A stretch of 64,000 nucleotides of DNA from Caldicellulosiruptor bescii DSM 6725 (GTDB taxonomy: Bacteria; Bacillota; Thermoanaerobacteria; Caldicellulosiruptorales; Caldicellulosiruptoraceae). Shown piece after piece: positions 1 through 16,997 of the stretch (positions within the stretch are counted from its first letter, which is position 1; the number at the start of each line of letters is the position of its first letter). Location of the stretch: NCBI RefSeq assembly GCF_000022325.1, contig NC_012034.1, forward strand, positions 1,692,501-1,756,500, read 5' to 3'. A model generated the notes under the pieces. The model worked only from the letters and a program-made list of their open reading frames with translations, searched no databases and was not told the origin of the DNA. A program made the translations under genes and the position numbers.

Positions 1-2483
1 CCAATCATATCATAGGTGAGTTTTATTCTGCCAGACAGAACTGCATGAATTCTATCTTCAATAGAATCTTTGTATCTTAAGTTATACACATAAACCTTGT
101 CAAATTGCTGACCTATTCTTCTTATTCTTCCCTGGCGCTGCTCAAGTCTTATTGGGTTCCATGGAAGGTCAACGTTTATAAGAGCACCAAGCGTTTGCAA
201 GTTCAAACCTTCTGCCGCAGCATCTGTTCCTATCATAAGTTTAATTTTACCGTCTAACACAAGCTCTTTTATCTCATCCCGTTCTACCTTTGAATAAACT
301 CCATTCTTGATTATGCCAGATTTATCACCACCCGCATAAATTGCTATGTTCTTGTCTGGCATAGCTGAAGACAACTTTTGTGCAATGGTCCATGCTGTGT
401 CAAAGTACTCAGAAAAGATTATGCAGCCTCTTTTAAGCCACCCCATGTCGTTTAAGATATGCAAAATTTTGTTTAGCTTTGGATCTTTGTCTTTGTTATA
501 TTCAAGAAGATCTATTATTTCTTCCAAACAGAAAAGTTCATCCCTGCCTGTGATACTAATTCTATCAGGCATTTCATCGTCTTCATCCTCTTCAGAAAAG
601 TCGTCTTTAACAATTGCTCTCTTTTCATAAATTGCTTTCGCAGTGTTCAAGCCTGCTTGCATAGAAGAGCCCATCCTTCGCAAAAGTAGTGTCTTGTAAA
701 ACCCTTTCGCGCCTGTTTTCTGCCTTAGTAAATTTGTAAATTCTTCAGCATATTCATAAGCTTTTTTGAGTGGTGCAGAAAGTACAAGACCTTCATCATC
801 ACCTTCACCAAAAAGGACAACATCAATCTTCTTAAGATACGGCTCACCTGTTTCTGGATCAACTGTATTTTCAAGTGTACTTCTTTTCCTCTTGACAATA
901 TGTCTGATAAAAGGATTATACTTTTCCATGAAGTTTTCTTCTATAAGCTCATCTACGATATCCTGCTGGGATGGCAAAAGTGCATCATAATCATCATATG
1001 AAACATACTCATTGTCACCCATACCAAGTGATCTTCTGAGTTTCCCAATTGTAAATGGATTTTCACTTGAGGGAGGCAGAGGATTTCTTATCCAGCTCCA
1101 GTAATAAGCCTTACTTGAAATTTCTTTTTCTCCCCTCACATAATCAATTCCTTCTAAAGGTCTCAGTTGCCACAGGCTAAATGCATCGCCTAAAACCTTT
1201 TGAGAGCCCTGTGCAAGTATATACAGAAGGTCCCAACCCTCAATGGGATGTAGCTGAATTGGAGTTGCAGTTGCTAAAATCATTGCCTTTGTCTTTTGTG
1301 ATAGCTCAAGTAAAAACTTCATAAGGTTGTTAGGCTCTGGCTTTTCAGCGGGCTTATTTAAATTTTGGCGCCTTGCCCTGTGCGCCTCATCAACAATTAC
1401 ACATTCATACTCAAGGTCCAAAAGAGGCTCTACAATATCCGAATTAGAGGTAATCAAGCCTTGTGAAATTATTCCTATTCGCCTTGGACACTGTAAGATT
1501 GGGGGTATGCCATTTGCCTGTGGCCTGTACTCTTGCCCTGTTTCAACTATCCATCTTTTCCCATCCCACACAGCAGAAGGTATATCAAGCATTGTTTTGA
1601 GCTCATCCTGCCACTGCCATAAAAGTGTCTTTGGAACAATTATTAAAACAGGTTTGTCTCCATAGAGCGCTGTTATCTGAGCAATCATACCAAGCTGGGC
1701 GGTTTTGCCAAGTCCAACCTCATCTGCAAGAATGTATCTTGCTCTATCTTTGCAGTGCTCTTCAAACACCATTTTTACAAAATACTTTTGGTGATTCCAA
1801 AGCCCAAAACCTTCCCGGTAAACAGGTGCTTCTATTACAGGGGATGCAGGATCAGGCTCTTTTTTCCATTCCTCAATGCTAACTATATTTCTTTCTGCCA
1901 ATCTTCCTATATTTTCAATTATCAAATCACAAAGCTCACAAGCATAAGGATTATTCCAGAAAAAGTCAAACTCATTTTGCACCCATTCCACGCTCTCAAT
2001 ACTGTCATCTGCCCAAAGTATCTCGTAGTTGCCTTTCCAGGCAGGTAGGGTTTCATTGACACTCCCAACAAATGCAATCTTTCTACCATCTGATAGAGTT
2101 ATGACACCGGCTTTGCCATGTACAAGTCCATATACATCATTTGGTACAACTCTTACCTGAAGTTTACCGCTTTTCAGAAGTTCATAGAGTTTTTTAAACC
2201 TCTCTGGAAACTGTTCAGCCTTAAGCTCAGGTTTTGATTTGAACCATTCCCTGACAAGCTTTTGTTTTGCAAGTTTTGCCACCAAAACGTCCTTGCTCTC
2301 AACCTCAGAGTTGCAAACAACCCTTGCAACTCCTTCTATACTCTCAATTGCTTCACCTGCTATCTCTAAGATAGATGAGCTAAAGTACCCAGCAAGTCTA
2401 TCATAGCTTTTAGCATTTTTCAGGTGTTTGTTTAAAAATCCCTCTGCAAGGTCAATAAGACGTGACGAATATCTTTCAAGCAT
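1..2483 (-). CDS. PLD/SNF2-type helicase of a DUF499-DUF1156 defence operon (3' part missing)
   Basis: Superfamily 2 DNA translocase/helicase, cut off by the left edge after about 827 codons. The first ~170 residues look like a phospholipase-D-like domain: HGK at 122-124 and a GSVNET motif at 140-145. The RapA/SNF2-like motor follows, with motif I (DEVGLGKT, 254-261), DEAH at 365-368 and ATATP at 404-408. Motif VI (QRQGRIRRIGQ) is encoded near positions 111-150. The ATG start lies 79 bp after the methylase stop, and no other start upstream fits. It is the last visible gene of the operon starting at 9335. The domain order resembles helicases of predicted phage-defence operons, including DISARM DrmD. 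The function (DNA translocation or cleavage of invading DNA) is inferred. HKD is not complete in the usual spacing, so PLD activity is uncertain. Confidence 0.85.
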   Translation of the reverse strand, partial: MLERYSSRLIDLAEGFLNKHLKNAKSYDRLAGYFSSSILEIAGEAIESIEGVARVVCNSEVESKDVLVAKLAKQKLVREWFKSKPELKAEQFPERFKKLYELLKSGKLQVRVVPNDVYGLVHGKAGVITLSDGRKIAFVGSVNETLPAWKGNYEILWADDSIESVEWVQNEFDFFWNNPYACELCDLIIENIGRLAERNIVSIEEWKKEPDPASPVIEAPVYREGFGLWNHQKYFVKMVFEEHCKDRARYILADEVGLGKTAQLGMIAQITALYGDKPVLIIVPKTLLWQWQDELKTMLDIPSAVWDGKRWIVETGQEYRPQANGIPPILQCPRRIGIISQGLITSNSDIVEPLLDLEYECVIVDEAHRARRQNLNKPAEKPEPNNLMKFLLELSQKTKAMILATATPIQLHPIEGWDLLYILAQGSQKVLGDAFSLWQLRPLEGIDYVRGEKEISSKAYYWSWIRNPLPPSSENPFTIGKLRRSLGMGDNEYVSYDDYDALLPSQQDIVDELIEENFMEKYNPFIRHIVKRKRSTLENTVDPETGEPYLKKIDVVLFGEGDDEGLVLSAPLKKAYEYAEEFTNLLRQKTGAKGFYKTLLLRRMGSSMQAGLNTAKAIYEKRAIVKDDFSEEDEDDEMPDRISITGRDELFCLEEIIDLLEYNKDKDPKLNKILHILNDMGWLKRGCIIFSEYFDTAWTIAQKLSSAMPDKNIAIYAGGDKSGIIKNGVYSKVERDEIKELVLDGKIKLMIGTDAAAEGLNLQTLGALINVDLPWNPIRLEQRQGRIRRIGQQFDKVYVYNLRYKDSIEDRIHAVLSGRIKLTYDMI

Positions 2484-2562
2484 ATTTTACAAAAAGGCAA
2501 TACCCCGCACCCTTTTTCTGCAGGATACTGCCTTTTTTGGCACCTCCTTCTTGCTTTAAATT

Positions 2563-5457
2563 TTACAGTCTATCGTTTGCCACACGCTCAGCAAGATATG
2601 AAGCTATTTTTGAGTCGTTTTGCCAGTGTTCCATGCCATCAATTTTCTCAAGCCTTGCAAGGTATCTGAATATTATCTCTATCTTGGTTTTGTTGTTCCA
2701 GTATTTTGTTCCAAGTTTGGTCTTTAACATCTCATGTGAAAGTGCAACCGCCTCGGCAGTGTCATTTATTTCCTGGTCTTTTTTTATTGCGCTATTTATC
2801 GCTAAAAGACACAAGCGCAAGATTGTTGTACTAAACGCATGTTTGGTATCAAGAAGTCCCTGCCCAAGCTCGCTTGCTGTCTTCAGTCTTGCCGAATTTG
2901 ATTTTTTAATTGCAAAAAGTTCATCATAATCAGCAACACCAAGACTCCTTGCAGCATCTTGATATGCACCTATTCTTTTTTCACCCCTTGTTTCAAATTC
3001 GATGCCTCTTATATAAAACTTCTCATAGCTTTCCATCTTGCGCCAAATTTCGTAAATGGTATCTTGGTCAAACCCAAGGTATTTCAAACCTTCTGGTACT
3101 ATGTAGCTGCTTGCATATTCGCGCATGGAATCCAAAAACTCTTTAATCTTCTGGTTTGTTGCTTTAAGATTGCAGGATGTCAAAACACGCAATGCTGCAT
3201 AGTAGCCTGACAGCTCCAAATCTGTTGGACTAAAATTAGGCTCTGCTTCATCTTTGTCAAGCTCATACATGAGCTTTATCTGTCTTTCTACCTCTTCTTT
3301 GCCAAAAGGATATAGCTCTTCAATAAATACAGGCTCAAGTTGAGTTCTATCAATCTTCTTTAAAACAACACACACAGTTGACTGGACAAAATTGCCCTCT
3401 GACATATTGTCCTCTGTCTCTGTTGCAATGCTCCATGCATTGACAGACAAAAGCCCTGAGTTAAGCAAAATTTCTGTTAGGTCTGCAAAAACCTGTGAGT
3501 CCTGGTGTGTAAACATGAGGACAAAATAGCCATTTTCAGGCATATTAGAAACTATGTTTTTAAGAATCTCCGTAAAAGCAGTTTTAAACAGTTCGCGGTC
3601 ACCCCGAACTGCCAATGCCCTTTTGCTGTCTGTATACCAATCTGGAAAAACTTCTTTCAAAAACTTCTTATCCCATGCTAAGAAGAACTCAGAGAGCTCA
3701 TGGTAATTTATTGCATCAGCATAAGGCGGGTCTGTTATCCAAATGTGGCAGGCTTGATTTACATCGCGGGCATCGGTAGGATAAACTATTTTGTGATTAT
3801 TTGACAACAAATAAGGCTTTAAACTGTCTAAAAACCATGGTAAAACAGTCAATCCTCTTACATTAAAATTGAACAACGTATTCAATGCCTGATTGTAAAA
3901 TGTGTTCTTCCCATTATCCTCACGCGTATTGTCCCATAGACATAACTTAGAATTCCACGTAACACACCTATTAACCCCCAGTAGCCCCACAATCTTCTCC
4001 TCTTTCGTCTTTGCCTTTTTGTCAATCAGTTCCATCAAAAGCCCATGTAAAAGTAACTGTCGTAGATTGAAAAGCTGATGCCAATATGCCCAACCTCTTT
4101 CTCTGTACAATCTGCTTGTTTCTTCACCCTCTTCAATCATATCACTTGGAATATATCCTTTTTGCTGCCACTCCTCAAATCTTTCTTTCAAAAGTTCTAT
4201 AACTTTCTTTTCCCTTTCAAAATCCTCATCATCCGGAGCTTTGTAGTATCTTTGCCCTTTTTCATCCTCATATCTTATGCAATACAATCTTTCTTGAAAA
4301 ACATCATCTTCTCTTGGCACAAATTCATGTTTTTCCCAGCGTCTTAGCCCCCAAATTGTTTTGCTACTCTCATCAACCTTATCTCCCCTAATTGACGAAA
4401 TACTTGTTTCCATTTTACAATGTGGACAAATTAAATAACCATCCTTTACAGTTCCGTTTTTAGCTGCTTGTTCGAGCTCTGATTGGCTGACTTTCGTTTT
4501 GATTTCTATATCAAACCCTTTTTTAGCTGGGTTTTCGTGCAACACAGCAATAGTTTTAGAATTTTTGCCAATTACCAAAGAAGGTAGTAGAGGAACTTTG
4601 AACCCACATTCAGGACAAATTGTCTCAACGCAGTATAAATATGCATTTGCTCTATGCCCTTTTGAGTTGTGCTCAATCTGCCACTGAGTTACAATCTTGT
4701 CTGCCTGCTCAAATATTCTTTTTTGAAAATCTTTTAGCTTTTCAATCGCATCTTCGGGCAGGCTCAAAAGATTCAAAGCTGCCCACGTAAGAAGCATTGC
4801 AATTGGATTTAGGTCTGACGCAAAAACACCAAACCCAAGCCTTGCTGCTTCAAATGGAATACTCCCTCCACCGCAAAAACAATCTCCAACTGTTGGAAGT
4901 TGTCCAAATCTTTTTTTGCCAAGCTCTTCAACAAGGGCTTGATATGAATATGCATTTGTTCCAAGATGCTCATTTATCTCATCCCAAGCGCTCTTAGGCA
5001 GATTTTCTATCTCTTCGGGACGCTTGCAATATCTTAGCTTCTGTTCATATGGCATCCTTTTAAATATTCTTTCTTGAAATCCTTCCCTCTCAGCTTTTTT
5101 TAAATCTTTTTTGTAGCTTATTTTCCCCTCATCTGCAACATCAAAATATTTTGCCTTTTCTTCTTCTGTTGCAAACTCATAAGCATCCTTTGCTGATATG
5201 CTACTTTTTCTTCTCAGCTTCAAGCCCTCTTCATCCATAGTCATAAGCTTAAGAAAAATTTTCATATCTTTTTTGGGGTCATCTGTTGCAGGCAAAAGAA
5301 CTCCCAAAAGTAGTGCACGCACAAGCACAAGAGGTTTTCTGCCCCACCATTTGCCAAGTCCTGTTAATGTCTGTCCTGCACCTGCTTTTCGCTCTTTAAA
5401 TGCCTCCTTTGAAAGTTTTGAAACTGGAAATTGAACCTCTATTAAAGATTTCTCCAT
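2563..5457 (-). CDS. DUF1156 adenine-specific DNA methylase, defence-associated
   Basis: Predicted DNA N6-adenine methyltransferase of the COG1743/DUF1156 family, 964 aa. The DUF1156 signature is at the N-terminus (GKWWGRKPLVLVRA, 35-48). A SAM-binding motif follows (DCFCGGGS, 192-199). CPEC at 281-284 and CPHC at 344-347 form a likely zinc ribbon. The catalytic TDPPY is at 575-579. Family members modify host DNA in several defence systems (type 3 BREX carries a COG1743 methylase). Here the likely job is to mark self DNA while the ATPase and helicase act on foreign DNA; that division of labour is inference. It starts 40 bp after the DUF3780 gene and precedes the helicase. No frameshift is seen. 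Confidence 0.9.
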   Translation of the reverse strand: MEKSLIEVQFPVSKLSKEAFKERKAGAGQTLTGLGKWWGRKPLVLVRALLLGVLLPATDDPKKDMKIFLKLMTMDEEGLKLRRKSSISAKDAYEFATEEEKAKYFDVADEGKISYKKDLKKAEREGFQERIFKRMPYEQKLRYCKRPEEIENLPKSAWDEINEHLGTNAYSYQALVEELGKKRFGQLPTVGDCFCGGGSIPFEAARLGFGVFASDLNPIAMLLTWAALNLLSLPEDAIEKLKDFQKRIFEQADKIVTQWQIEHNSKGHRANAYLYCVETICPECGFKVPLLPSLVIGKNSKTIAVLHENPAKKGFDIEIKTKVSQSELEQAAKNGTVKDGYLICPHCKMETSISSIRGDKVDESSKTIWGLRRWEKHEFVPREDDVFQERLYCIRYEDEKGQRYYKAPDDEDFEREKKVIELLKERFEEWQQKGYIPSDMIEEGEETSRLYRERGWAYWHQLFNLRQLLLHGLLMELIDKKAKTKEEKIVGLLGVNRCVTWNSKLCLWDNTREDNGKNTFYNQALNTLFNFNVRGLTVLPWFLDSLKPYLLSNNHKIVYPTDARDVNQACHIWITDPPYADAINYHELSEFFLAWDKKFLKEVFPDWYTDSKRALAVRGDRELFKTAFTEILKNIVSNMPENGYFVLMFTHQDSQVFADLTEILLNSGLLSVNAWSIATETEDNMSEGNFVQSTVCVVLKKIDRTQLEPVFIEELYPFGKEEVERQIKLMYELDKDEAEPNFSPTDLELSGYYAALRVLTSCNLKATNQKIKEFLDSMREYASSYIVPEGLKYLGFDQDTIYEIWRKMESYEKFYIRGIEFETRGEKRIGAYQDAARSLGVADYDELFAIKKSNSARLKTASELGQGLLDTKHAFSTTILRLCLLAINSAIKKDQEINDTAEAVALSHEMLKTKLGTKYWNNKTKIEIIFRYLARLEKIDGMEHWQNDSKIASYLAERVANDRL

Positions 5458-5497
5458 CTTCTTCCATCTCCTTTTAGGTCAAGAATTTCTGTCAGTA

Positions 5498-6100
5498 TTA
5501 CTCTTCATATATAACTTTTTGTTCTTTGATGCTTTCAAAGTCAAGCTGTTTAATTTGTTTTTGACTTACTGGATTATCAAGCAAAGCATATTTTAGTGCC
5601 ATTCTCCAACCTTTTCTGTCATTTACCCTGCCTGTTGCAGCATTTGTAACACCATACAACCACCATCTCTCTTCTGGTCGCAAACCTTGCCAGTTGACAA
5701 TTGCAACAGGCACCTGCGAATCATCAGTGCAATCTTCCAGTGCCCAGAGCAAAACCACAAGTTCTTTCCCCAAAAGTCTGTGAACGGGATTTTGCCCAAC
5801 TTTCCACTTAGATTTCTTAAAACCCTCCTTTTCAAGCCGAAAATTGAACTCCTGTGCAATATACGGTGCAACTCTTTGCCACAGCCATTTAGGAACAATT
5901 ACTTTGAGCTGGTTGTGAAGAGGACTGTTCTCATCAATATCTTGTGCTTCCTTCCCCTCTTGCCATATAAATCTTTCATACACCTTTACTGTCTCGTTCT
6001 TCCCTTGAGGAATTACCACCATAAAATGGTGCTGCGTCTCAGATGGTACATATCCAAAGCCAATTGAGGCTGCAGCGTCTTTCTTTTTAGATTTACTCAT
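5498..6100 (-). CDS. DUF3780 protein of the DUF499 defence operon
   Basis: A 200-aa protein matching DUF3780 by context and by its start (SIGFGYVPSETQHHFMVVIP region). The family has no known enzymatic activity. It occurs almost only between DUF499 and DUF1156 genes, so it is probably a subunit or adaptor of that complex. Its ATG overlaps the last 8 bases of the DUF499 gene, which indicates translational coupling. The protein is soluble, with no signal peptide or membrane segment. Many Trp and Arg residues in the C-terminal half (for example LRPEERWWLYGVTNAATG) suggest a compact folded domain. Confidence 0.82.
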   Translation of the reverse strand: MSKSKKKDAAASIGFGYVPSETQHHFMVVIPQGKNETVKVYERFIWQEGKEAQDIDENSPLHNQLKVIVPKWLWQRVAPYIAQEFNFRLEKEGFKKSKWKVGQNPVHRLLGKELVVLLWALEDCTDDSQVPVAIVNWQGLRPEERWWLYGVTNAATGRVNDRKGWRMALKYALLDNPVSQKQIKQLDFESIKEQKVIYEE

Positions 6101-9100
6101 TCTGTGTTATTGCCTCCTTGAAGTCATGAAGCGTCTTGCCTTTTTGCTTTATCCATTCTTCAAAGTCTTTTGCATCTTCAAATAACAGTTCTGTAATAAC
6201 AGCTCTCACGTTTTGAATCCCATCATTGTAGAAGTCGGTTTTGACCTTTTCAATATGTGTAAAAATCTCGCTTAGTTCTACCCCTTGTGGCTTTTTACAT
6301 GTCAGGACAATATAGTTATCATCATCTCTATAAATATCAAGAGAATAGGCAACAAACTTTCCTTTGTAATTTTTCAATAGTTCAATTTCTCTTTGAAGTT
6401 CTTCTATACTAAAAATCAGAATTTTCTTGCTACCTGAAAGTTTTAATTTAACCGGTTTTGTATAATCAAGTTCTATTTGCTTAATTACTATGTTTCCTGT
6501 AACATCTCTTCTCACAGGAATATTTTTTATCTCTGAAAAAACACCATCTTTTTCTGCAACCACATTAATTACCCTTGTATTATCTGGAATTGTAATATCA
6601 CCATTTTCGGCAACTTTGCCATTATAGCGCGGGTTTGAACCATCTGTTGTATACTTTACAGTTGCCTGCGGAGCTGTTCTTATTTTTATGTGAGCTCTGC
6701 CTTCTTGGTCGCAAAATCTTATATTGTCATCAAGTAAAATTTCACATTCATATTTTACAACATCACCTTTTGGATGATACCCTGTTGAATCAATGCAAAG
6801 GAAACTGAGCTTTACTGCTTTTGTCCTGAACTCATTAATATTTGGCACAACCGGTGAGTTCTCTGATACCTCCTTATCACCCTCTTCATAATGTACAACA
6901 TCACCAAACATTGGTATGAGCTTTAAAACTACCTCGCCTGTGTCAAAGTCAGGGGATACAAACTGAACTTTTACTGTTGTTTTGTCCTTTGCTGCCTCAC
7001 CTCTTAAAACAATCCCTCCACTTTCTTTCCACAAACCTTTTGAAAGCATCTCGCGCTTTAAATTCTCCAGGGCCTCTGGTGGATGCCAAAACCACCTTGC
7101 ATCTCGCGCTGCTCTTTCAACAATCTCGGACCAAGACATTGACTCTCTTGTGAAGAGCAAATTCTCTACCTTTTCGCGAAATTCATCAATGTCATTTACT
7201 TCTATATACTTTTTGTTAAGCAACACTTTTTGAATGACAATCTCTCCATCTCGGTTGTTGCCAAGAAGAGCTCTAACTCTGTCTATCCCTTTTGAACCTT
7301 GAGAATCACTATTTTCACTCGCTGGCAGATATTTTAAATCTTCAGAAATAAGTTCAGCGTTCTGTTTAGTATATGGCCTCTGTGGATAGTAAATCTTGTT
7401 AAAAGTCTCTCTCAAGACTTCTAAAACTGCAGTTTTCATCTTGCTCTGTTCATTTTCTGCTCGTTGATATTCTGTGTCAGTCTCTGGAACACCCTCTTTT
7501 CTGAGCTCATTTAGCACGTTTTCCCAACACATATACTCTCTTATTTTCTCTAAAAGCGTATTATACATGGTAGTAGAACCTGTTAAAAAGAGAAGTCTAT
7601 TTTTGTAAGTTTGATTTTGCCAAAAACCAATCAGTGCTGGGTTAAGAGACCCTTTTGAGTCATAAGGCTTTGAAATAATTAGCGTTACATTGTTCATATC
7701 CACATTGATTTTTGATATGTCATTTGGCAAAGCGACAATCTTTTGGTACACCTTCTGATAGCAGTTTAGATTCCTTGGTGAAAAATATTCATAAAGAAGC
7801 CTCTCTAACACTGCCTCCGCTTCATCTAATGTATACATACTTTTGAATTTTCTCATGCGCGCAACTACATTTTCCATTGGTGTAATATATATTCTGTCAT
7901 TTGCATCAATTCTTGTATGTAATGAATTTTGCTTAAATTCTTCAATTATGTTCGCAAGACTGCTTAAATCTTTGTTTGGAGAGCTCATATATGCAAAAAG
8001 CTCACTTGTTGTAAGACCTAATGGAGATTTTGTAATTTCAGACAGCGAAGACAGCAAAATCAATTTTGCAACTTCACTTGCTAAGTTAGTATTGTACTTT
8101 TGGTCAATAGCCTTTGCAGTTGTAATATGAGCTGTTGAATAAACATCGTGCATAATGGCATTTTCTAAACTCTGCTTTATATTTATAATCTCTTCGCGCG
8201 TGTTGTAATCGCTCAGGTCAAAGTCGTATGGTTCAATTAAATACTTCTGCTTTGCAAGTTTCCCTTCTTCACTGTAAAGATATCTTATGTAGTGCCTCAT
8301 AAGACGAATAAGTCCTCGTGTTTGCTGGAAATTGACATTTTCCCTGAATCTGCTAACAAGCTCCATTATTGCAGGATGAAACGGATATGTTCTCTTAATC
8401 TCAGTGTAAATTCGCTCTGGCTCAACTGTAGTCTGTCCTTTTCTATTACCTTCTTCAATAACCTCTTTGTAGGCTTTTGCAATCTCTTCTACATCTGGGT
8501 CATTTTCAGGGTTTTGAGGATACTCTTTGAAAAATCTTTTTCTCAAAATACAGTATACATCATTTGTGACCATATCAACCGGCTGGATAGAAGAGGCAAC
8601 ACGGGTTGCTTCTTTGTCAAGCTCTGTTGCTAAAGCACTTTGTAAAAGTTTCCCTCCTTGCTCATACGCTGCTTGAAGGTCTGCCACAACCACCATTACG
8701 TTTGAAAGCTCTTTTTTCTGGATTGCATTGAAAAGATTCGAAAGCCCAATTGAAACAACCTTTCCAAAGTTACTCTCACCAACTGGAATACTCTGGACAT
8801 ACTCAAGATATAGCGGAAGCTCATCAAGCAGTATCAAAAGCGGGTCCCCTGCTAATAGCTCTGTCCACTCTCTATCGCCAGGTGCAAACATATGATTTTG
8901 AAGGGACTTGTTCAAAACCTCTTGCTTGCCAAGCTGGTTCGCTATTTCTACCCATGGGATTGAATTTGTCCATCTTCCAGTAAATACTGCAAGTCTTATT
9001 CTACCTGTGTACATATATGGATAATCATCACCTAAAATCTTTTTTCTGATTTCCGGATACTTTGCCAAAAGCCCCAAAGCAATCATGTTATGGGTCTTGC

Positions 9101-9335
9101 CACCACCCATTGCCTGTCGCAGAACAATTACACCTTGTTCATCATCAATTCCACTAAATCTTTTGAATGCAACATCAAATAATCTTCTCATACCGTTTGT
9201 TATGTATGTTTGTTCAAAAAACTTTTCCGGCTTGATTTTGTCAGAAAGAAGGTCTGAGATTTCCTGAACATCTTCTGAGCTTCTTGTTGTGAACACATCA
9301 TCCCTGGGTTTACAAAGCTCGAAAAGAGTTTTCAT
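6093..9335 (-). CDS. DUF499 P-loop ATPase, first gene of defence operon
   Basis: Large ATPase, 1080 aa, of the DUF499 family. The P-loop (GGGKTH) is at 77-82 and Walker B (LILLDEL) at 167-173. The N-terminus, with EDVQEISDLLSDKIKP at 21-36, is typical of the family. The C-terminal part has a stretch like the ligand-type beta domain seen in chitobiase-like modules (TDGSNPRYNGK). The ATG has a GGAGG box 9 bases upstream. The gene opens a four-gene operon with DUF3780, DUF1156 methylase and PLD/SNF2 helicase. This set recurs in defence islands and has been predicted to act against phage. The role as the ATP-driven hub, analogous to BREX BrxC/PglY, is inference. A decayed second DUF499 5' end lies at 16757-16966. 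Confidence 0.88.
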   Translation of the reverse strand: MKTLFELCKPRDDVFTTRSSEDVQEISDLLSDKIKPEKFFEQTYITNGMRRLFDVAFKRFSGIDDEQGVIVLRQAMGGGKTHNMIALGLLAKYPEIRKKILGDDYPYMYTGRIRLAVFTGRWTNSIPWVEIANQLGKQEVLNKSLQNHMFAPGDREWTELLAGDPLLILLDELPLYLEYVQSIPVGESNFGKVVSIGLSNLFNAIQKKELSNVMVVVADLQAAYEQGGKLLQSALATELDKEATRVASSIQPVDMVTNDVYCILRKRFFKEYPQNPENDPDVEEIAKAYKEVIEEGNRKGQTTVEPERIYTEIKRTYPFHPAIMELVSRFRENVNFQQTRGLIRLMRHYIRYLYSEEGKLAKQKYLIEPYDFDLSDYNTREEIINIKQSLENAIMHDVYSTAHITTAKAIDQKYNTNLASEVAKLILLSSLSEITKSPLGLTTSELFAYMSSPNKDLSSLANIIEEFKQNSLHTRIDANDRIYITPMENVVARMRKFKSMYTLDEAEAVLERLLYEYFSPRNLNCYQKVYQKIVALPNDISKINVDMNNVTLIISKPYDSKGSLNPALIGFWQNQTYKNRLLFLTGSTTMYNTLLEKIREYMCWENVLNELRKEGVPETDTEYQRAENEQSKMKTAVLEVLRETFNKIYYPQRPYTKQNAELISEDLKYLPASENSDSQGSKGIDRVRALLGNNRDGEIVIQKVLLNKKYIEVNDIDEFREKVENLLFTRESMSWSEIVERAARDARWFWHPPEALENLKREMLSKGLWKESGGIVLRGEAAKDKTTVKVQFVSPDFDTGEVVLKLIPMFGDVVHYEEGDKEVSENSPVVPNINEFRTKAVKLSFLCIDSTGYHPKGDVVKYECEILLDDNIRFCDQEGRAHIKIRTAPQATVKYTTDGSNPRYNGKVAENGDITIPDNTRVINVVAEKDGVFSEIKNIPVRRDVTGNIVIKQIELDYTKPVKLKLSGSKKILIFSIEELQREIELLKNYKGKFVAYSLDIYRDDDNYIVLTCKKPQGVELSEIFTHIEKVKTDFYNDGIQNVRAVITELLFEDAKDFEEWIKQKGKTLHDFKEAITQNE

Positions 9336-9573: not shown

Positions 9574-11499
9574 TTACATAAAATCTCTATATTCTACAAT
9601 ACCCGATTTGGCAAGTAATTCATAAAATTTTTTAACATTTTCTGCAGTTTGGCAAGGATTTGCTCCGACATCTCTATATTTACTAAAAGTTATTATTACA
9701 CGTCTTTTCGCTCTCGATAAAGCTACAAAAAAGGCGCAAGTATCTTGTTCAGGTTGATTTTTAATACTCCAAAATGCTGAATCTTCTAAACCAATGAATA
9801 CAACAGTATCATATTCGAGCCCTTTACTTTTATGAATAGTCATAATAGGAATACTGTTTATTCCTATAAAGTTAGTTATTGCTTTTGACCAATTATTTGT
9901 TATTTCAAATTCATTCCACAATAATTTAATAGACTTATTCATTAAATCATTAAACCATGCTGTATTTCTATACTGCGGAAAATAGGATATTAATCTATCC
10001 ATTTTTAAATATCTAATTATAATTTTATATAATTCTACAATTTGTTTCTGATTATCAATCTTAAGTAGTTTTTCGTTTGCAAACCTCAATAACTCTGTTA
10101 TTTCAGATTCAAGTTTAATTAAAAACCTCTCTGGAGTGTCATCATCATATCCATTTAATATTTTTATAAAATCGTATACAAATGTGTATGAATTATTTCC
10201 ATTAATATTTAATGCTAATGAAAATAAATTAATTATAAACTGAATTATTTCCTCATTTAATAAATCTGAAACTTCGCCTTCATCTCTTGCATTCATGCTA
10301 TTTTCAGCTAATGTTTTAATCAGCATATTTGTGTATTTAGAAGGACGTTGTTTTACCAAAACACAAATATCTCTATGACTTAAATCTTCTGAATTTAGCC
10401 ACTTCTTTATGTTTTCAGATAAAATTTGAGCTTCTTTAATATAATCATTAAAAATCCAAACTTCACATATTCCATCATCTTTACTCCATTTTTTGCTATT
10501 CTCTATTTTTAAATCGGACAAATCTATTTTTTCACCAAATGCTTCTTTTATAAAAACTTTTTGCAATTCAACTAAACGCGGCGCAGACCTATGATTCATC
10601 AGTAAATTTATTCTTTGGGCATTGAAATCTTTTTCAAACAATTCAAATGAATTTCTTAGTGCTCCTGCCCATTCCATAATTCGCTGTTTATTATCTCCTA
10701 CTGCAGTTATTACGGCATTAGACCCGAGAAAACAAGTTTTCAATAAATCATATTGTACTCCTGTTATATCCTGAAATTCATCTAAAAATACATGTGAATA
10801 TGTCGCTCGCAATGCTTTAAGAACAAAAGGATTTTCCCTCAAGATATATTCAGCAAGTCTTGAAATCATTGGAAAAGTCAGAGCAGGTTTAAAATCTTTA
10901 TCTCCTTTCAAAAATAATTTCCATAATTCGTTAATCATCCATTCTTCTAAATTGTTAGGTTCATTATTAAAGGGAAGCTTTTTATCTGTCATTTTTTTAT
11001 TAATAATATTTTCTATTGAAAGACTATGAATTCCATCAACATAATCACCTGTAAGTAAATGTTTCGGTTCTTTTCCCTCAAATCTTAACAAAATGCTTCG
11101 CTTCCCCTCTCTTAATACAGAAGGATTAATATCATAATTAACATCAGGTCTGTATACTTCAGGAAGTCCATACAGAAATCTATCCAAAAGGCTCTTAGCA
11201 AAAGCATCAAAAGTTAGTGATACAAATCTATTCGCCAATTTCTGACCACATCTTTTTTGAACCCTTTCTGCTAAATTTTTGGCAGCTTCTTTTTTATAGC
11301 TGATTGCAAGTATCCTTTTTGGTGAATAGCAAATACCCGTTTGAAGTAAAAAACAAGCCCTTTGAGCAAGCAACTCTGTTTTACCTGAGCCAGGTCCAGC
11401 TATTACTAAATAGTTGCAATTACTTTTAACTACTATCTCTGCATTTTTTTCAAGTTCAATTCCATCAGCAGGTTTCCATTGTTCCTTTGGTATCAGCAT
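9574..11499 (-). CDS. UvrD/Rep-like superfamily 1 helicase, Gabija GajB-like
   Basis: Superfamily 1A helicase, 641 aa from the chosen start. Walker A (AGPGSGKT) is at 34-41. A DE-box occurs in LDEFQD, and near the C-terminus are TIHKSKGLEYD and a final SRAKRR motif. It carries the helicase core only, shorter than UvrD (~720 aa) but longer than typical GajB (~500 aa). The ATG chosen has AGGAG 9 bases upstream. An ATG three codons earlier sits directly on the ribosome site and is unlikely. It overlaps the OLD nuclease gene by 35 bases, the arrangement expected for class 2 OLD/Gabija pairs, where GajB senses DNA ends and activates the nuclease. Assignment as Gabija is by domain order, not by tested similarity. 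Confidence 0.88.
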   Translation of the reverse strand: MLIPKEQWKPADGIELEKNAEIVVKSNCNYLVIAGPGSGKTELLAQRACFLLQTGICYSPKRILAISYKKEAAKNLAERVQKRCGQKLANRFVSLTFDAFAKSLLDRFLYGLPEVYRPDVNYDINPSVLREGKRSILLRFEGKEPKHLLTGDYVDGIHSLSIENIINKKMTDKKLPFNNEPNNLEEWMINELWKLFLKGDKDFKPALTFPMISRLAEYILRENPFVLKALRATYSHVFLDEFQDITGVQYDLLKTCFLGSNAVITAVGDNKQRIMEWAGALRNSFELFEKDFNAQRINLLMNHRSAPRLVELQKVFIKEAFGEKIDLSDLKIENSKKWSKDDGICEVWIFNDYIKEAQILSENIKKWLNSEDLSHRDICVLVKQRPSKYTNMLIKTLAENSMNARDEGEVSDLLNEEIIQFIINLFSLALNINGNNSYTFVYDFIKILNGYDDDTPERFLIKLESEITELLRFANEKLLKIDNQKQIVELYKIIIRYLKMDRLISYFPQYRNTAWFNDLMNKSIKLLWNEFEITNNWSKAITNFIGINSIPIMTIHKSKGLEYDTVVFIGLEDSAFWSIKNQPEQDTCAFFVALSRAKRRVIITFSKYRDVGANPCQTAENVKKFYELLAKSGIVEYRDFM

Positions 11500-13522
11500 A
11501 TTTTTCATCTCCTAAATTAGATATATCAGAGTAGGGGTCATTTTCTAATAATTCTTTAGCCCTGTTTATAAGGTTTTTAAAAACATCTGGCATGTTTGAT
11601 TTTATACTATCCCCAAGTTCTATCAAAGCTTGAAAATGAGTATTTGGCTTACCTCTACCCAAAAATAAATATTTATACCAGACCATCAACTCCTTTTCAT
11701 TATCTGAATAAGTTATACCAGTAGCATTATCTGATTTCAAAACACTTTTTACAACATTGTCAATATAACGTGCATAGTCTTCTTTTTTTGTAATTTTATC
11801 AGGAATTCTTGGACCACCTTTTTTAGGTATAAGTTTTTTATATGCTTCCTCATAAGTACTTAACATTGAAAAATCTATATCAAGTGGAAATGAAAAAAAT
11901 ATATCAAATTGTTGAAGATGTTTTGCAAACTTTTCTATTTTCTCTCTGCTATATTCGTCATATGACCAATTTGGCATATTGTCAAATTCTTCTTTAGATA
12001 AATCTGCTAAAACACTTTTTTCATCATAGCCACTTTGTATAAGCTGATTCATTATATAATGCAACTTTTCCCATCCCCCTGTATTTCTTTCGATATCCAT
12101 ATCAAGCAATGTTATATAATTAATACCAATATCTTGCAGAAGTCTCCAAAAATGATTTACAAATCTTCCTCCAAGTGGCACAATACTTATTGCACAGCTA
12201 TCAGCTGACAAACCGCTCTTTTCAATCATTTTCTTGATTATTAGTTCTTCACTATCACCTTCACCTAATATTACCAACCTGGAAAAGTATATCTCAGGAT
12301 AAGCTTTTACAGCCTCCTTTACATATTTAAATGCTTCATCAATTTGTTCTGGTAAAATAATCCTTGAAACTTTAGTACATAAATCCTCATTTTTTATTCT
12401 TAGGTGACGTATTTCTGTAGGCTCAATTCTACTTATAATACTTGCCGAATGTGAAGTAAGTATAACCTGTGCATTTTGCTTTGAGGAAATATCTTTTAGG
12501 TTATCCATAATACGTCCTAATAAATGAGGACAAACATGATTTTCTGGCTCTTCTATTGCAAGCAAAACAAGTGTCGAAGGTTCTTTGTTAAAAGGACTTT
12601 TAGAAGAATGTTTTGACTGTAGGATTCTATTCTCAAATTCAAGAAGGGAATTTACCAATGTTAAATAAAATAGCGAGCGCAATCCATCGCCCAATTCATT
12701 TACTGTATAAGACTTAGGTTCAGAAGTTGGATAAAATTCTATTTCAACTTTCTTTAAAACAGTATCCAAGTCTCCCCTACTAAAACGCATGTGTGCCTCT
12801 TTATACCTATAATCCCTATGATATTTCTTCCACGTATTACTAATAATTTCTTTTACTAAAGATACTCCTGGATTTTTTGCAAAAAGTTTGTCAATCTCTT
12901 CCGTCTTCTCCCTTATCTTACTTTTGAAATCTTCCTCCCATTCTATGCTATTGAGTATTTTCCAGAGTATAGAGTTCGAAACATTTCTTAATTGAGGAGA
13001 GACATCTCTTATAGCCGGAACATATACAAATAGAATTCTTGATAAATGCTCTCGTTTTGCTTTTTCGTAATCGCTGTCTTTTTCTCTACCTTCCGGGGCT
13101 TTAATAAATAATATTTCTGTTTCAATATCTCCATCAGGAGTATTACTTTTTTGCCATGAAGATTTCAAACATATCCTTACATATGGTAAAACGCCAGGTT
13201 CTCTAATAACCATATAATTCCAAAAAGATGGTATACTATTGAGTTCAGTATTCTCTTGCCGCAATTCTGGAAAACTTAATTTTACCTCTATGTATAAGTC
13301 GTTATTTTCAATTTCTTGCGGATCCATGCTTTTAGGTACATGGAAATCAGAACGTTTAATCTCTTTATTGTCACTCCCAAATATTTTCATTAATGCATGT
13401 AAAACTGCTGTTTTTCCACAGCTATTTGCACCTATTAAAGCAGTTAGCTTATCAAATTCAATTACTGTTTCCTCAGGACCAAAGCATCTAAAATTTCTGA
13501 TTTTTATTTTATCAATATACAC
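11465..13522 (-). CDS. OLD-family ATPase/TOPRIM endonuclease, Gabija GajA-like
   Basis: AAA ATPase plus TOPRIM nuclease, 685 aa (GajA is about 580). The ABC-type ATPase has Walker A GANSCGKT (31-38), the signature region NELGDGLRS (275-283) and Walker B LLAIEEPE (320-327). The TOPRIM part has EGDSEE (421-426) and the metal-binding DMD at 474-476. A C-terminal extension of about 150 aa follows. In Gabija, the GajA homologue is a sequence-guided DNA-nicking enzyme held off by nucleotides and assembled with GajB. Start is GTG with AGGAG 9 bases upstream. It lies 36 bp after the NACHT gene and overlaps the helicase gene, so all three should be co-transcribed. Alternative: a class 2 OLD outside the strict Gabija clade. 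Confidence 0.88.
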   Translation of the reverse strand: MYIDKIKIRNFRCFGPEETVIEFDKLTALIGANSCGKTAVLHALMKIFGSDNKEIKRSDFHVPKSMDPQEIENNDLYIEVKLSFPELRQENTELNSIPSFWNYMVIREPGVLPYVRICLKSSWQKSNTPDGDIETEILFIKAPEGREKDSDYEKAKREHLSRILFVYVPAIRDVSPQLRNVSNSILWKILNSIEWEEDFKSKIREKTEEIDKLFAKNPGVSLVKEIISNTWKKYHRDYRYKEAHMRFSRGDLDTVLKKVEIEFYPTSEPKSYTVNELGDGLRSLFYLTLVNSLLEFENRILQSKHSSKSPFNKEPSTLVLLAIEEPENHVCPHLLGRIMDNLKDISSKQNAQVILTSHSASIISRIEPTEIRHLRIKNEDLCTKVSRIILPEQIDEAFKYVKEAVKAYPEIYFSRLVILGEGDSEELIIKKMIEKSGLSADSCAISIVPLGGRFVNHFWRLLQDIGINYITLLDMDIERNTGGWEKLHYIMNQLIQSGYDEKSVLADLSKEEFDNMPNWSYDEYSREKIEKFAKHLQQFDIFFSFPLDIDFSMLSTYEEAYKKLIPKKGGPRIPDKITKKEDYARYIDNVVKSVLKSDNATGITYSDNEKELMVWYKYLFLGRGKPNTHFQALIELGDSIKSNMPDVFKNLINRAKELLENDPYSDISNLGDEKYADTKGTMETC

Positions 13523-13558
13523 TTTATTTCACTCCTGTGTAATTACTTATATCTTCTT

Positions 13559-16500
13559 TTATTTGCAACTGTTTTTTGTCCGCCATTGTCTTATAATATT
13601 AGCAACTTTATCTGCGTAATCAGGATTTTTTAAACCGAAGCAATTTAAATTTTTCAACCAATCTTCATTTCCAACATAGTCTATGATCGTTAAAACATAG
13701 TCCCAAAAGTCTTTTTTATTCTCTGAATTCAAAATCTCAAAGCATATTTCAAAAACATATTCTTGGAAAAGTGAAGATAATATTTCTTGAATAAAGTAAG
13801 TTAAATAATAGCTGCTACGAAATGGTACATAAAAATCAGATACTTGAATTATTGCCTCTCTTAGATTATTAGGATTTTCCAATTCATCCAATAAGCATTC
13901 TTTTGCCTTTTTATACTCAGCAGCTATCATAGGTAGCTTTTCGGATTCGTTAGATATAAACATCTTATAAATACCATACAAGAAAAATATCTTATAGGTA
14001 TATTCCTTGCTGTTCTTAAATTCAGAAAGCAAAATATTTAATTTTTGGGCATTAGGTTTCCTATATAGTCCTTCAAGCGCATATGTTCTAACCCCATCCC
14101 ATTTCCCATTATAAAAATAGTGTTCAGATGTATAATAACAGTATCTCCTCAATATTTTAAGGGTATTATCATCGTTAAATTCAGATATATAAAATAACAT
14201 ATCAGATAAAATTATTTCATTTTCATTCAATTTCGGATCGTTAAATGCGAATTGTAAAGCTTTCTTATATGCTTCATCCCCAATGATTTTTCGTACCTTG
14301 GCAGGAGCACTCCATAAATACTCAATTTCTTCAAAGTTTAATGTTGCCAATTGCTGACCAATGTAATAATCATTATTTTTTTCACAGTTTAAAGCTCTTT
14401 CAACAAGTTCTCTTATAAATTCATCATTATCACACGGCTTAAGTTCTCCCATTAACTCCATTACCTCTATAATAAGATTGTTTGCAAGACCCCAAAAATG
14501 TCCTTTATATGTTTTTTTAAACATCTCATAAACCTCTTCTACACCTTTAGGTTTGATTCTAAAATATGAATCTAGCTCTAAAAGTATATAATATAAAAAA
14601 TCCTTATCCTTATACTTAAAGCACTTCAAATAAAAATCCTTAACCTTATCCCATTGTTCATCACTTGCTTTATCAAGATGTTTAATAAATCTTGCGGCGA
14701 GTATTGTAGCGGCTTTACCATATTTAAAAGGATTGGTTAATAAGTCCAGGACTTCAGCAAGACGCATTCTTCTAAAAACCTCTATTCCAGGCATGCTGTT
14801 GAAAATGGCATTAATATCACTATTTTTAAACCTGAAACTACTAAAATCTTTATAACCCTTCTCCTCTTTACTTTTCAAATATTCAAACACAGCCATTAAT
14901 AACCTTTTATCATAATAAAAACGGCTGCAAATACATAATGCCTTGTCAAAGTTTTCATTATTTTCTTCATCATTTGAAAATACTTTTCTAACGAAATCTA
15001 CTACTCTCTCACTTACAAAATCATCAATTCTTTCGACTGCTTTTTGAAAAAGGCTGGATGGTATATTTTCAATATTTTTTTCAAAAAATGAATTTTCATT
15101 TTCAAATGCTATCAATAGAGGCTCCATTAATACTGGATTTTTGAAAACATCAGCAAGAAAATCAGAATCATCTTTTTTTTCTAAGATATACACACTAGCA
15201 AAAAAATCTACAAGATTATTATGTTCAAACTGATAATAATCGTTTAATTCTTGTATAAATTTGCAACTAACCAAACAATCTCTTACATCATCTATGTTAA
15301 TTTGGCCAAAAAGGGAAAATTCATTTAAAGCATCTGCAATGAGCCTGTTAATATAGCATAAATTTAAACGCACTTCCATATCATTTAATGTTTTGAAAGC
15401 AATATATGAAACAAGATAAGCTAAAAACTTTTCCTTTAATTTAAACTTATTTATTATGTCACGATTCCATTTAAGCATTTGATTAAATAATTCTTTATAA
15501 AAATAATGTGGTTTGCTACTAATTTCTTCTAAGAAAACAATAATACTTTTTTCTTGTTTTAATGTCTTAATTATAGACACAACTATAGTCAGATTAAATG
15601 GATTTGATAATAATTTTAAGATGTTTGTATTATTATTACAAAAATCTTTAATAATATTTAACTTTTCTGGCACAACTCTTGAAACAAAATTCAATATAGC
15701 ATTATATTCTAATGGTTTCATTATATACTTTTCAAAATTTACGTTTTCAATTTTACTAACTTGATTATTTCTACAAGTAATAACAAATGTGTTTTTATTA
15801 TACTTTAGGTTTTGAAGACATTTTATCTTAAATTCCTCAAAATATTTTTCAGATAATTCATCAAAACCATCAAGAAATATTTGAAAACGACCTTCTAATA
15901 AGAGCCTATTTATAAGCTCTATGTTAATCTGATTAAAACCCTTTTCGATATTAATTTTTATATATTCAGGCAAAGCTTCGCCACAATAACTCCTAAGTTC
16001 ACAAAATACTGGTATAGATTTTAAATTCTTTTCTTTTAAACATTCTAAAAACCATCTCTTAACGAACGTACTTTTGCCTGCTCCAGCTTCCCCTGTCAAT
16101 ATAATGTTCTGTTTTGTTTTAAAGTCAATCTCCGTCCCATTTGAAACAGAGACAGCCTTTAATTCAAGTGCATAAATATCAAATTCCAGAAGCTTTCGAT
16201 GATAGTTTTCCCTTATTTCCCTCGAAGCAAGCAGAGGATACTTATTTTCGATATAATATTTTAGTTCGCTTTCCAAGTTAATTGAGAAAACATCGACCTC
16301 AAAATATTTACTAGCTTTGACTCTTACATCATAATTGTTAAGAATAAGAGAAATTATTAAATCAATATCTACTATGTCTAAATCCCAACCATACTTTGAG
16401 CATTCTGCCCTACATTCTCTTCTAATATCATCTTTGACCTTTGAATTGCAGCATAAAACAACTCTTCGCACATCTTTAGCATATTCCCAATAACCCACTT

Positions 16501-16756
16501 CTTTTATATCTCTAAGAAGTTTATTTTTTAAACTTTTCTCATCAGAAGTTGTATATTGAAAAGCATATATGCTTCCGTCAGGAAAAAATTTTATTGAATC
16601 CGGAGTACCTGGCACGGGCTTATCTTTATATAAATGCATACCATGTGAGTCAAGGTTAGAATATTCAGGATTGTAATGTTCCAAAATTTCATCACATAAC
16701 CTATGAAACTTATCATCAGATATACTTACTAATCCATCATATAGTTGTTTTCTCAT
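13559..16756 (-). CDS. NACHT STAND NTPase with N-terminal nuclease-like domain
   Basis: A 1065-aa predicted immune sensor/effector. Residues 1-145 form a restriction-endonuclease-like (PD-(D/E)XK) domain: GTPD at 50-53, then FQYTT at 66-70, where relatives usually have EYTT. The NACHT module follows, with P-loop GEAGAGKST at 212-220 and Walker B FLDGFDEL at 284-291. The remaining ~700 aa are helical and poorly conserved, as in the sensor part of Avs-like and bNACHT proteins. I chose ATG at 16756 because AGGGGTG lies 7 bases upstream. The frame is open for 29 more codons, but these fall in a decayed DUF499 remnant. It leads an operon with GajA- and GajB-like genes 36 bp downstream. The ligand it senses is unknown. 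Confidence 0.85.
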   Translation of the reverse strand: MRKQLYDGLVSISDDKFHRLCDEILEHYNPEYSNLDSHGMHLYKDKPVPGTPDSIKFFPDGSIYAFQYTTSDEKSLKNKLLRDIKEVGYWEYAKDVRRVVLCCNSKVKDDIRRECRAECSKYGWDLDIVDIDLIISLILNNYDVRVKASKYFEVDVFSINLESELKYYIENKYPLLASREIRENYHRKLLEFDIYALELKAVSVSNGTEIDFKTKQNIILTGEAGAGKSTFVKRWFLECLKEKNLKSIPVFCELRSYCGEALPEYIKINIEKGFNQINIELINRLLLEGRFQIFLDGFDELSEKYFEEFKIKCLQNLKYNKNTFVITCRNNQVSKIENVNFEKYIMKPLEYNAILNFVSRVVPEKLNIIKDFCNNNTNILKLLSNPFNLTIVVSIIKTLKQEKSIIVFLEEISSKPHYFYKELFNQMLKWNRDIINKFKLKEKFLAYLVSYIAFKTLNDMEVRLNLCYINRLIADALNEFSLFGQINIDDVRDCLVSCKFIQELNDYYQFEHNNLVDFFASVYILEKKDDSDFLADVFKNPVLMEPLLIAFENENSFFEKNIENIPSSLFQKAVERIDDFVSERVVDFVRKVFSNDEENNENFDKALCICSRFYYDKRLLMAVFEYLKSKEEKGYKDFSSFRFKNSDINAIFNSMPGIEVFRRMRLAEVLDLLTNPFKYGKAATILAARFIKHLDKASDEQWDKVKDFYLKCFKYKDKDFLYYILLELDSYFRIKPKGVEEVYEMFKKTYKGHFWGLANNLIIEVMELMGELKPCDNDEFIRELVERALNCEKNNDYYIGQQLATLNFEEIEYLWSAPAKVRKIIGDEAYKKALQFAFNDPKLNENEIILSDMLFYISEFNDDNTLKILRRYCYYTSEHYFYNGKWDGVRTYALEGLYRKPNAQKLNILLSEFKNSKEYTYKIFFLYGIYKMFISNESEKLPMIAAEYKKAKECLLDELENPNNLREAIIQVSDFYVPFRSSYYLTYFIQEILSSLFQEYVFEICFEILNSENKKDFWDYVLTIIDYVGNEDWLKNLNCFGLKNPDYADKVANIIRQWRTKNSCK

Positions 16757-16966
16757 AAAAATTTCACCCCTCATTATTGATACCTTGTAAAATTTCCTAA
16801 AAACTTCATTAAAAAATATTTCAATTATTTGGAACTTGAGCACGGTCTAAAACATTTGTCGGGTTGATCTCATCAGAAAGTAAATTGGAAATTGCTTGGA
16901 CATCTTCTAAGCTACATGTTATAAAAAATTTTCATTGGAGTGCACATTTCTCCAAGAGTTTTCGCA
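16757..16966 (-). pseudogene. decayed 5' end of a second DUF499 gene
   Basis: Read leftwards in three frames, this stretch spells a DUF499 N-terminus. First comes KTLGEMCTP (compare KTLFELCKP in the intact gene). Then, one frame over, SLEDVQAISNLLSDEINP (compare SSEDVQEISDLLSDKIKP). After a second shift comes FFNEVFRKFYKVS (compare LFDVAFKRF). It has no start codon and ends where the NACHT gene begins. The match is to the family rather than an exact copy, so it derives from a diverged homologue, not a recent duplication of the gene at 6093-9335. It gives the NACHT gene a spurious 29-codon upstream extension. Confidence 0.8.
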
Positions 16967-16997
16967 GTACCTTCTTCTTCTGTACATTGTTTGATTT

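What the first reader, a model, noticed from the sequence alone, without database searches (positions are those of the whole stretch)
1..9335. DUF499-DUF3780-DUF1156 methylase-PLD/SNF2 helicase operon
Seen: the complete order with 8-base overlap of DUF499 and DUF3780. Known: this group recurs in defence islands and has been predicted as an anti-phage system; its parts echo BREX (ATPase, methylase) and DISARM (SNF2/PLD helicase), but PglZ, BrxL, DrmA and DrmB are absent here. Mechanism, modified base and target are, to my knowledge, not established.
Basis: partly seen in the sequence, partly recalled or inferred. Interest (0 to 1): 0.72.

Follow-up and report, generated by a model that had tools for sequence, protein, structure and literature searches.

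The report
Type-2 BREX-related defence operon
This is a complete copy of a recently described bacterial anti-virus system (a 'Type-2 BREX-related' restriction-like operon) whose DNA-marking enzyme, but not its cutting machinery, swaps its target-reading part between related strains, which suggests that the marker enzyme tells the cutter where to act.

Summary
Four genes lie on the minus strand: DUF499 ATPase (6093-9335), DUF3780 (5498-6100, 8-base overlap), DUF1156 methyltransferase (2563-5457) and a PLD-SNF2 helicase (1-2483; its last 187 bases lie left of the window, 889 aa in all). A GmrSD-type endonuclease gene follows with a 4-base overlap. The set is not unnamed: it is the Type-2 BREX-Related (BR) system of Rakesh & Krishnan (NAR, January 2026), and PADLOC-DB and NCBIfam hold models for all four proteins. 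Modified base, target and mechanism remain unmeasured.

New here: (i) methyltransferase residues ~505-570, just before DPPY, are a swappable hypervariable patch, while helicase, DUF3780 and DUF499 of the same pairs can be 98-99.7% identical; (ii) a congener has a clean IS insertion in the methyltransferase with the other genes intact; (iii) nine virus contigs carry a solitary DUF3780 without its partners. (i) and (ii) favour methyltransferase-guided restriction (Type I/BREX-like) over an independent Type II-like nuclease; (iii) is a lead for anti-defence. No function was shown.

The parts
6093..9335 (-). DUF499 AAA+ ATPase (BrxC-like), 1080 aa; Walker A GGGKT at residues 77-81, Walker B D171-E172, FnIII-like stretch at residues 883-934
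   Evidence: K80 in 79 of 80 relatives (one gap), D171/E172 in 80 of 80
5498..6100 (-). DUF3780 small subunit, 200 aa; invariant GxE...W...EERWWL...WR signature; overlaps DUF499 by 8 bases
   Evidence: AlphaFold2 pLDDT 89, pTM 0.84; no PDB or BFVD fold match with E<=0.001
2563..5457 (-). DUF1156 amino-methyltransferase (COG1743-like), 964 aa
   Evidence: NF042963, 1241 bits, cut-off 1000
4858..4881 (-). methyltransferase motif I (CFCGGGSI, residues 193-200)
   Evidence: F194, G196-S199 invariant in 71 of 71
3748..3945 (-). hypervariable, swapped patch of the methyltransferase (residues 505-570): candidate core of the target-recognition domain
   Evidence: 37-46 of 66 residues differ from five congeners against 43-122 of 898 elsewhere, Fisher p 3e-15 to 7e-38; a sixth congener shares the allele
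3721..3732 (-). methyltransferase motif IV DPPY (residues 576-579)
   Evidence: 70 of 71 intact; one row reads DPSY
1..2483 (-). HKD (PLD)-SNF2 helicase-nuclease, first 827 of 889 aa; the rest lies at G000:C1:1692314-1692500, left of the window
   Evidence: NF042964, 1247 bits, cut-off 1100
2055..2120 (-). HKD nuclease signature (H122-x-K124 ... G140-S141-x-N143)
   Evidence: each residue 66 of 66 in relatives
1701..1715 (-). helicase Walker A (GLGKT, residues 257-261)
   Evidence: K260 and T261 66 of 66; DEAH E366 66 of 66; motif VI R786 and R789 66 of 66

Best explanation
A Type-2 BREX-Related (BR) anti-phage system that works as a methyltransferase-guided restriction complex. The DUF1156 enzyme recognises a short DNA motif through a swappable target-recognition patch and marks the host's own copies (m6A more likely than m4C; m5C unlikely because the motif is DPPY). 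The DUF499 AAA+ ATPase (BrxC-like) is the ATP-driven scaffold; DUF3780 is a small obligate adaptor or methyl-state reader. On unmarked invading DNA, the complex licenses the HKD-SNF2 protein to translocate and cut. The 3'-overlapping GmrSD-type gene adds a second, probably modification-dependent, nuclease. Shown: anatomy, operon conservation, intact catalytic residues, purifying selection, specificity patch confined to the methyltransferase, natural methyltransferase knock-out with the other genes intact. Inferred: methylation, the complex, cutting, phage defence.
For: Membership: all four proteins match dedicated PADLOC and NCBIfam models, in the published gene set. Order 84/85 and translational coupling. 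Catalytic residues essentially invariant. dN/dS 0.05-0.22 for the core genes against congeners. Guided-restriction part: G302 has DUF499 99.7%, helicase 98.4% and DUF3780 98.5% identical to the window but the methyltransferase patch only ~43% identical; the same local drop recurs in pairs from other hosts and in virus-borne copies (e.g. L135/L136: helicase 98%, DUF3780 99%, methyltransferase 37-40% over residues 481-570). The cutter therefore need not change when the target reader does. Congener G278 has the methyltransferase split by an IS256/Mutator element (9-bp duplication CAAGAAAGG; removing it restores one 966-codon frame) while DUF499, DUF3780, helicase and GmrSD are full length: the cutter without its methyltransferase is not lethal, as expected if the methyltransferase is needed to target it.
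Against: No methylation, cleavage or phage data for this operon in the papers held. A C. bescii strain lacking only the CbeI enzyme takes unmethylated E. coli plasmid DNA readily (~1000 transformants per ug; PMC3679861), so this operon is no strong barrier to that plasmid: it may be silent, phage-triggered, or the plasmid may lack the site. The G278 knock-out could equally mean that the effector is silent there or acts only during infection. Hypervariability could in principle reflect escape from a phage inhibitor rather than DNA target choice. The 'N6' assignment is by motif only; M.CbeI of C. bescii has DPPY yet makes m4C (PMC3425538). The window's DUF3780 and DUF499 score below the NCBIfam cut-offs (164 v 200; 681 v 1200), i.e. 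divergent members.
Confidence: 0.68

Rival explanations
1. Type II-like restriction-modification: the PLD-helicase (or GmrSD) recognises and cuts unmethylated sites on its own and the methyltransferase independently protects the host.
For: Nuclease and methyltransferase are in one operon; both active sites are intact.
Against: The target-reading patch changes in the methyltransferase while the helicase stays 98% identical; a congener lacks a functional methyltransferase yet keeps an intact nuclease.
Confidence: 0.1
2. The methylation arm is incidental and defence is infection-triggered or abortive: DUF499 and DUF3780 sense a phage product and release the HKD-helicase, as with other nuclease-helicase defence pairs.
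For: Unmethylated plasmid DNA is not excluded when CbeI is gone; methyltransferase-less G278 tolerates the rest; DUF499 C-terminus varies between congeners.
Against: The methyltransferase is kept in nearly all loci, with essentially invariant catalytic motifs and an actively diversifying target patch, hard to explain if methylation were incidental.
Confidence: 0.2
3. An epigenetic methylation module or a silent relic without restriction in this host.
For: No restriction phenotype is known; plasmid transformation is unaffected once CbeI is removed; absent from 4 of 12 genomes of the genus.
Against: All reading frames intact, dN/dS 0.05-0.22, nuclease and ATPase residues conserved, defence-island setting.
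Confidence: 0.12

Closest known systems
Type-2 BREX-Related (BR) systems (Rakesh & Krishnan 2026, PMC12839542)
   Same: DUF499 ATPase, stand-alone DUF3780, DUF1156 N6-type methyltransferase, N-terminal HKD fused to a Swi2/Snf2 helicase; FnIII-like stretch before the C-terminus of DUF499; GmrSD and OLD-TOPRIM nucleases as neighbours
   Different: Nothing essential. This copy has a GmrSD-type gene overlapping the helicase stop; the paper does not report target-patch swapping with constant partners or solitary phage DUF3780 (text searches)
NCBIfam NF042961-NF042964 'anti-phage-associated' set and the PADLOC-DB DUF499/DUF3780/DUF1156_MTase/PLD_Helicase models
   Same: Same four proteins, full length; E. 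coli UMNK88 and an A. baumannii plasmid carry operons so annotated
   Different: Two of four score below the NCBIfam curated cut-offs. From memory, not verified: this is the 'RL' (restriction-like) system of Gao et al. 2020; Gao_RL is listed as an SNF2-helicase system in PMC10925250
Hma / Type-1 BR (PADLOC 2021, PMC8565338)
   Same: Helicase, methylase and DUF499-type ATPase core; HmaC, HmaB and HmaA models hit more weakly
   Different: Type-1 has a C-terminal PD-(D/E)XK nuclease and N-terminal TUDOR on the helicase and no DUF3780
BREX (Types 1-6)
   Same: BrxC-like ATPase plus methyltransferase logic; Type-3 BREX has a related MTase and BrxHII helicase
   Different: No PglZ anywhere in the genome
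DISARM
   Same: SNF2 helicase, PLD domain and methylase in one locus; DrmD models hit the helicase domain
   Different: No MZB/DUF1998 (DrmB) match in the genome; PLD is fused to the helicase

Membership tests
Type-2 BR system | DUF499 AAA+ ATPase with intact Walker motifs | tested here: met
Type-2 BR system | Stand-alone DUF3780 gene in the core locus | tested here: met
   (3.1e-49)
Type-2 BR system | DUF1156-type amino-methyltransferase with motif I and DPPY | tested here: met
Type-2 BR system | HKD nuclease at the N-terminus of a Swi2/Snf2 helicase, in place of TUDOR | tested here: met
   PLDc_2 at 54-176, H122/K124/N143, SNF2 at 231-444
Type-2 BR system | FnIII-like domains before the DUF499 C-terminal RRM (about half of members) | tested here: inconclusive
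   CHB_HEX_C_1/Fn3_assoc at 883-934; RRM not tested
Type-2 BR system | Methylates host DNA and restricts phage | not testable with these tools
   no methylome or infection data for this locus
BREX | PglZ | tested here: not met
   no match in the whole genome
BREX | BrxL / BrxA / BrxB | not tested
   only flank annotation read; none seen
DISARM | DrmB (MZB/DUF1998) | tested here: not met
DISARM | DrmA helicase | not tested
   no separate DrmA-like gene in the flanks; only helicase-domain cross-hits
Hma / Type-1 BR | C-terminal PD-(D/E)XK nuclease on the helicase, no DUF3780 | tested here: not met
   HKD at the N-terminus, DUF3780 present, no REase domain in Pfam scan

The most novel reading that the evidence does not exclude
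Phages use solitary DUF3780 proteins as decoys or dominant-negative subunits against Type-2 BR systems. Nine IMG/VR virus contigs (13-71 kb) carry DUF3780 with no DUF499 or DUF1156 anywhere in the contig and no PLD-helicase within 10 kb; in L150 it lies just before terminase-portal-protease-capsid genes, in L151 near tail genes, in L152/L153 with a conserved small upstream gene (and next to a Sak4-like gene in L152). The copies keep the invariant EERWWL...WR signature, sit on long branches, and the one pair that could be measured is under purifying selection (dN/dS 0.15).
Probability: 0.2. Interest if true: 0.75.

Novelty: new member of a known kind. Interest (0 to 1): 0.45.

Why it matters
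Type-2 BR is reported from over a thousand taxa (PMC12839542) but its target, mark and division of labour are unmeasured. The comparison here turns that into a direct test: congeners share nearly identical nuclease, ATPase and DUF3780 but carry different methyltransferase target patches, so methylomes of a few cultured strains should give different motifs, and swapping a ~65-residue patch should redirect both marking and restriction if the methyltransferase guides the cutter. The natural methyltransferase knock-out predicts which gene deletions are safe. The solitary phage DUF3780 genes give a first concrete set of candidate inhibitors.

Tried and rejected
Fold search of DUF3780: two models (pLDDT 76 and 89) against PDB, the better one also against BFVD; no match with E<=0.001, so its 'reader' role could be neither supported nor refuted. 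Known BamHI/BspEI resistance of C. bescii DNA as the mark of this methyltransferase: rejected, because G304 (2,970,275 bp, by size C. saccharolyticus, from memory) has neither DUF3780 nor DUF1156 while that species is equally resistant (PMC3679861). Proteus phage Pm34 gp4 as an anti-defence gene: rejected; it and the neighbouring DUF499 C-terminal fragment are 92% identical in DNA to an E. coli operon, i.e. a recent piece. Promoter/terminator scan: not above shuffles. Rfam: no match. Plasmid look-up of the second contig to name the organism: no match. Gao et al. 2020 and Liu et al. 2024 are not held.
Full report
WHAT IS THERE. The window lies at C1:1692501-1756500 of a 2,931,662-base genome in three contigs; the contig sizes 2,919,718, 8,291 and 3,653 match my memory of Caldicellulosiruptor (Anaerocellum) bescii DSM 6725 with its two plasmids, an inference from size only. 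On the minus strand, in order of transcription, lie DUF499 (6093-9335), DUF3780 (5498-6100), a DUF1156 methyltransferase (2563-5457) and a PLD-SNF2 helicase (2483 to the window edge). The 8-base DUF499/DUF3780 overlap is real. The helicase ends 187 bases left of the window (889 aa), and a 583-aa GmrSD_N/DUF262 protein starts 4 bases before the helicase gene ends; then follows an OLD-TOPRIM gene. Upstream of DUF499 is a Gabija pair (GajB 9574-11508, GajA 11465-13522) and a NACHT protein (13559-16843).

IS IT MORE THAN CHANCE. With nine further loci taken from relatives, the order DUF499 > DUF3780 > methyltransferase > helicase holds in 84 of 85 loci where it could be judged; DUF499 and DUF3780 overlap in 64 of 87, median gap -1; the methyltransferase starts within 60 bases of DUF3780 in 76 of 87. 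Extra genes sit between methyltransferase and helicase in about a fifth of loci. Among the inserted or trailing genes scanned were Mrr, OLD-TOPRIM, OLD-type AAA, Schlafen AlbA_2, HIRAN, GmrSD and PIN proteins, the auxiliary-nuclease pattern described in PMC12839542.

CATALYTIC RESIDUES. HKD residues H122, K124, S141, N143 are 66 of 66; helicase Walker A K260, DEAH E366 and motif VI R786/R789 66 of 66; methyltransferase motif I glycines 71 of 71 and DPPY 70 of 71 (one DPSY); DUF499 K80 79 of 80 (one gap), D171 and E172 80 of 80. Core genes are under purifying selection against congeners (dN/dS 0.05-0.22).

NAMING. PMC12839542 (NAR, January 2026) defines DUF499-centred BREX-Related systems in three types; Type-2 is the one with stand-alone DUF3780 and an N-terminal HKD nuclease on the helicase, in 1120 taxa. 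Earlier partial notices are PMC3710099 (2013) and PMC7641849 (2020); Hma (PMC8565338) is the Type-1 relative. PADLOC-DB and NCBIfam already hold models of all four proteins. All defining features of Type-2 BR that could be tested are met; the FnIII-RRM tail was only partly testable. BREX fails on PglZ, DISARM on DrmB/MZB.

WHO CARRIES SPECIFICITY. Seven congeneric operons were compared by 30-residue windows. In the methyltransferase, residues 505-570, directly before DPPY, differ in 37-46 of 66 positions from five congeners, against 43-122 of 898 elsewhere (Fisher p 3e-15 to 7e-38), while a sixth (G306) shares the allele (2 of 66). G302 is the cleanest pair: DUF499 99.7%, helicase 98.4%, DUF3780 98.5% identical, patch ~43%. 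G302 and G300 carry similar patches on different backbones. The same local drop recurs in Thermoanaerobacter/Tepidanaerobacter/Caldicoprobacter pairs and in virus-borne operons (e.g. L135/L136: helicase 98%, DUF3780 99%, patch 37-40%), absent only in the most similar pairs; more distant pairs also vary over residues ~240-450. PMC12839542 places the target-recognition insert between core strands 2 and 3, with a 4-cysteine finger, which fits residues ~245-570; C281, C284, C344 and C347 are at least 97% conserved. I conclude that target choice sits in the methyltransferase and that the cutter and DUF3780 do not co-vary with it. This favours a methyltransferase-guided complex over a Type II-like nuclease with its own target.

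A NATURAL KNOCK-OUT. In congener G278 the methyltransferase is split by a Mutator/IS256 transposase gene (L107:7818-9047; Transposase_mut 3.8e-67) with a 9-base duplication CAAGAAAGG at 7802 and 9117; removing the element in silico restores one 966-codon frame. DUF499 (1072 aa), DUF3780, the HKD-helicase (887 aa) and GmrSD (583 aa) are intact. An intact cutter without its methyltransferase is tolerated, as expected if the methyltransferase is part of the targeting complex, or if the cutter needs an infection signal, or is silent there.

WHAT PUBLISHED GENETICS SAYS. C. bescii lacking only CbeI accepts unmethylated E. coli plasmid DNA at about 1000 transformants per ug, at least as well as protected DNA in the parent (PMC3679861). 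Under those conditions the operon was no strong barrier to that plasmid. This is the main evidence against a constitutive, short-motif restriction system. The base modified is also open: M.CbeI has DPPY but makes m4C (PMC3425538).

DUF3780. The 77-sequence model (pLDDT 89, pTM 0.84) is a sheet of four main strands with helices packed against it, as PMC12839542 describes, and has no PDB or BFVD match. E. coli UMNK88 has DUF3780 fused to DUF4357. Invariant residues W74, G111, E113, W137, EERWWL (143-148) and W165-R166 are the ones to mutate.

SOLITARY DUF3780 IN VIRUSES. Of 28 IMG/VR contigs with DUF3780, 19 carry partner genes, mostly the whole operon, and nine carry only DUF3780. Family searches over the whole contigs found no DUF499 or DUF1156 in the nine and both in all three positive controls; the helicase was checked only within 10 kb. 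L150 lies directly upstream of terminase, portal, protease and capsid genes; L151 near tape-measure, tail and DnaB genes; L152 beside a Sak4-like protein; the L153 contig has terminase. For L138/L145/L155, L149 and L154 viral origin rests mostly on IMG/VR's own call. The tree puts the solitary copies in several separate long-branch groups (at least three label changes forced by well-supported branches), with long-branch warnings. L152/L153 is under purifying selection (0.15). Anti-defence is the most interesting reading but untested; a phage-borne regulator or reader is equally open. I found no mention of it in PMC12839542.

VERDICT. A real, intact, well-conserved Type-2 BR operon; ordinary as a discovery. 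Its comparative genetics gives a sharper and testable model (methyltransferase-guided restriction with exchangeable target patches) and a lead on phage counter-measures.

Noticed in passing
G000:C1:1690566-1692317 (L002:15566-17317, minus), left of the window: GmrSD_N/DUF262 protein with DGQQR and an HNH-like C-terminus, overlapping the helicase gene by 4 bases; the same overlap in congeners G278 (L107) and G302 (L109), and a GmrSD gene about 5 kb downstream in G300.
   Followed up: partly
L150, L151, L152, L153, L154, L149, L138, L145, L155 (IMG/VR contigs): Solitary DUF3780 genes on virus contigs without partner genes; in L151-L153 they overlap by 4 bases a conserved small upstream gene (102-147 aa) of unknown family.
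   Followed up: partly
L107:7802-9125: IS256/Mutator insertion with 9-bp target duplication in the methyltransferase gene of a congener; all other operon genes intact.
   Followed up: yes
window 9574-13522: Gabija pair (GajB, GajA; genes overlap by 44 bases) directly upstream of DUF499; the same pair at the same 238-base distance in G302, GajB protein 100% identical.
   Followed up: partly
window 13559-16843: NACHT-domain protein of 1094 aa upstream of Gabija; no defence model fits beyond a marginal mad8 hit.
   Followed up: no
window 17815-18474: Short protein resembling the N-terminal part of MADS MAD6 and PglW (weak hits).
   Followed up: no
L002:6253-7398: D12-class (Dam-like) methyltransferase next to a 97-aa ORF, possibly a fragment of a restriction endonuclease, in the left flank.
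   Followed up: no
L127 (A. baumannii plasmid NZ_CP142894.1): Complete four-gene operon directly beside tnsA-tnsE of a Tn7-like element on a conjugative plasmid.
   Followed up: no
L126:11377-12465 (Proteus phage Pm34): A DUF499 C-terminal fragment plus DUF3780, 92% identical in DNA to an E. coli operon, in a phage genome record: recent capture or assembly join.
   Followed up: partly
L032 (Thermobrachium celere) 10574-13745 and 16624-19664: Two methyltransferase genes flank the helicase, each split into two ORFs (326+736 and 350+639 aa): possibly a genuine two-subunit methyltransferase.
   Followed up: no
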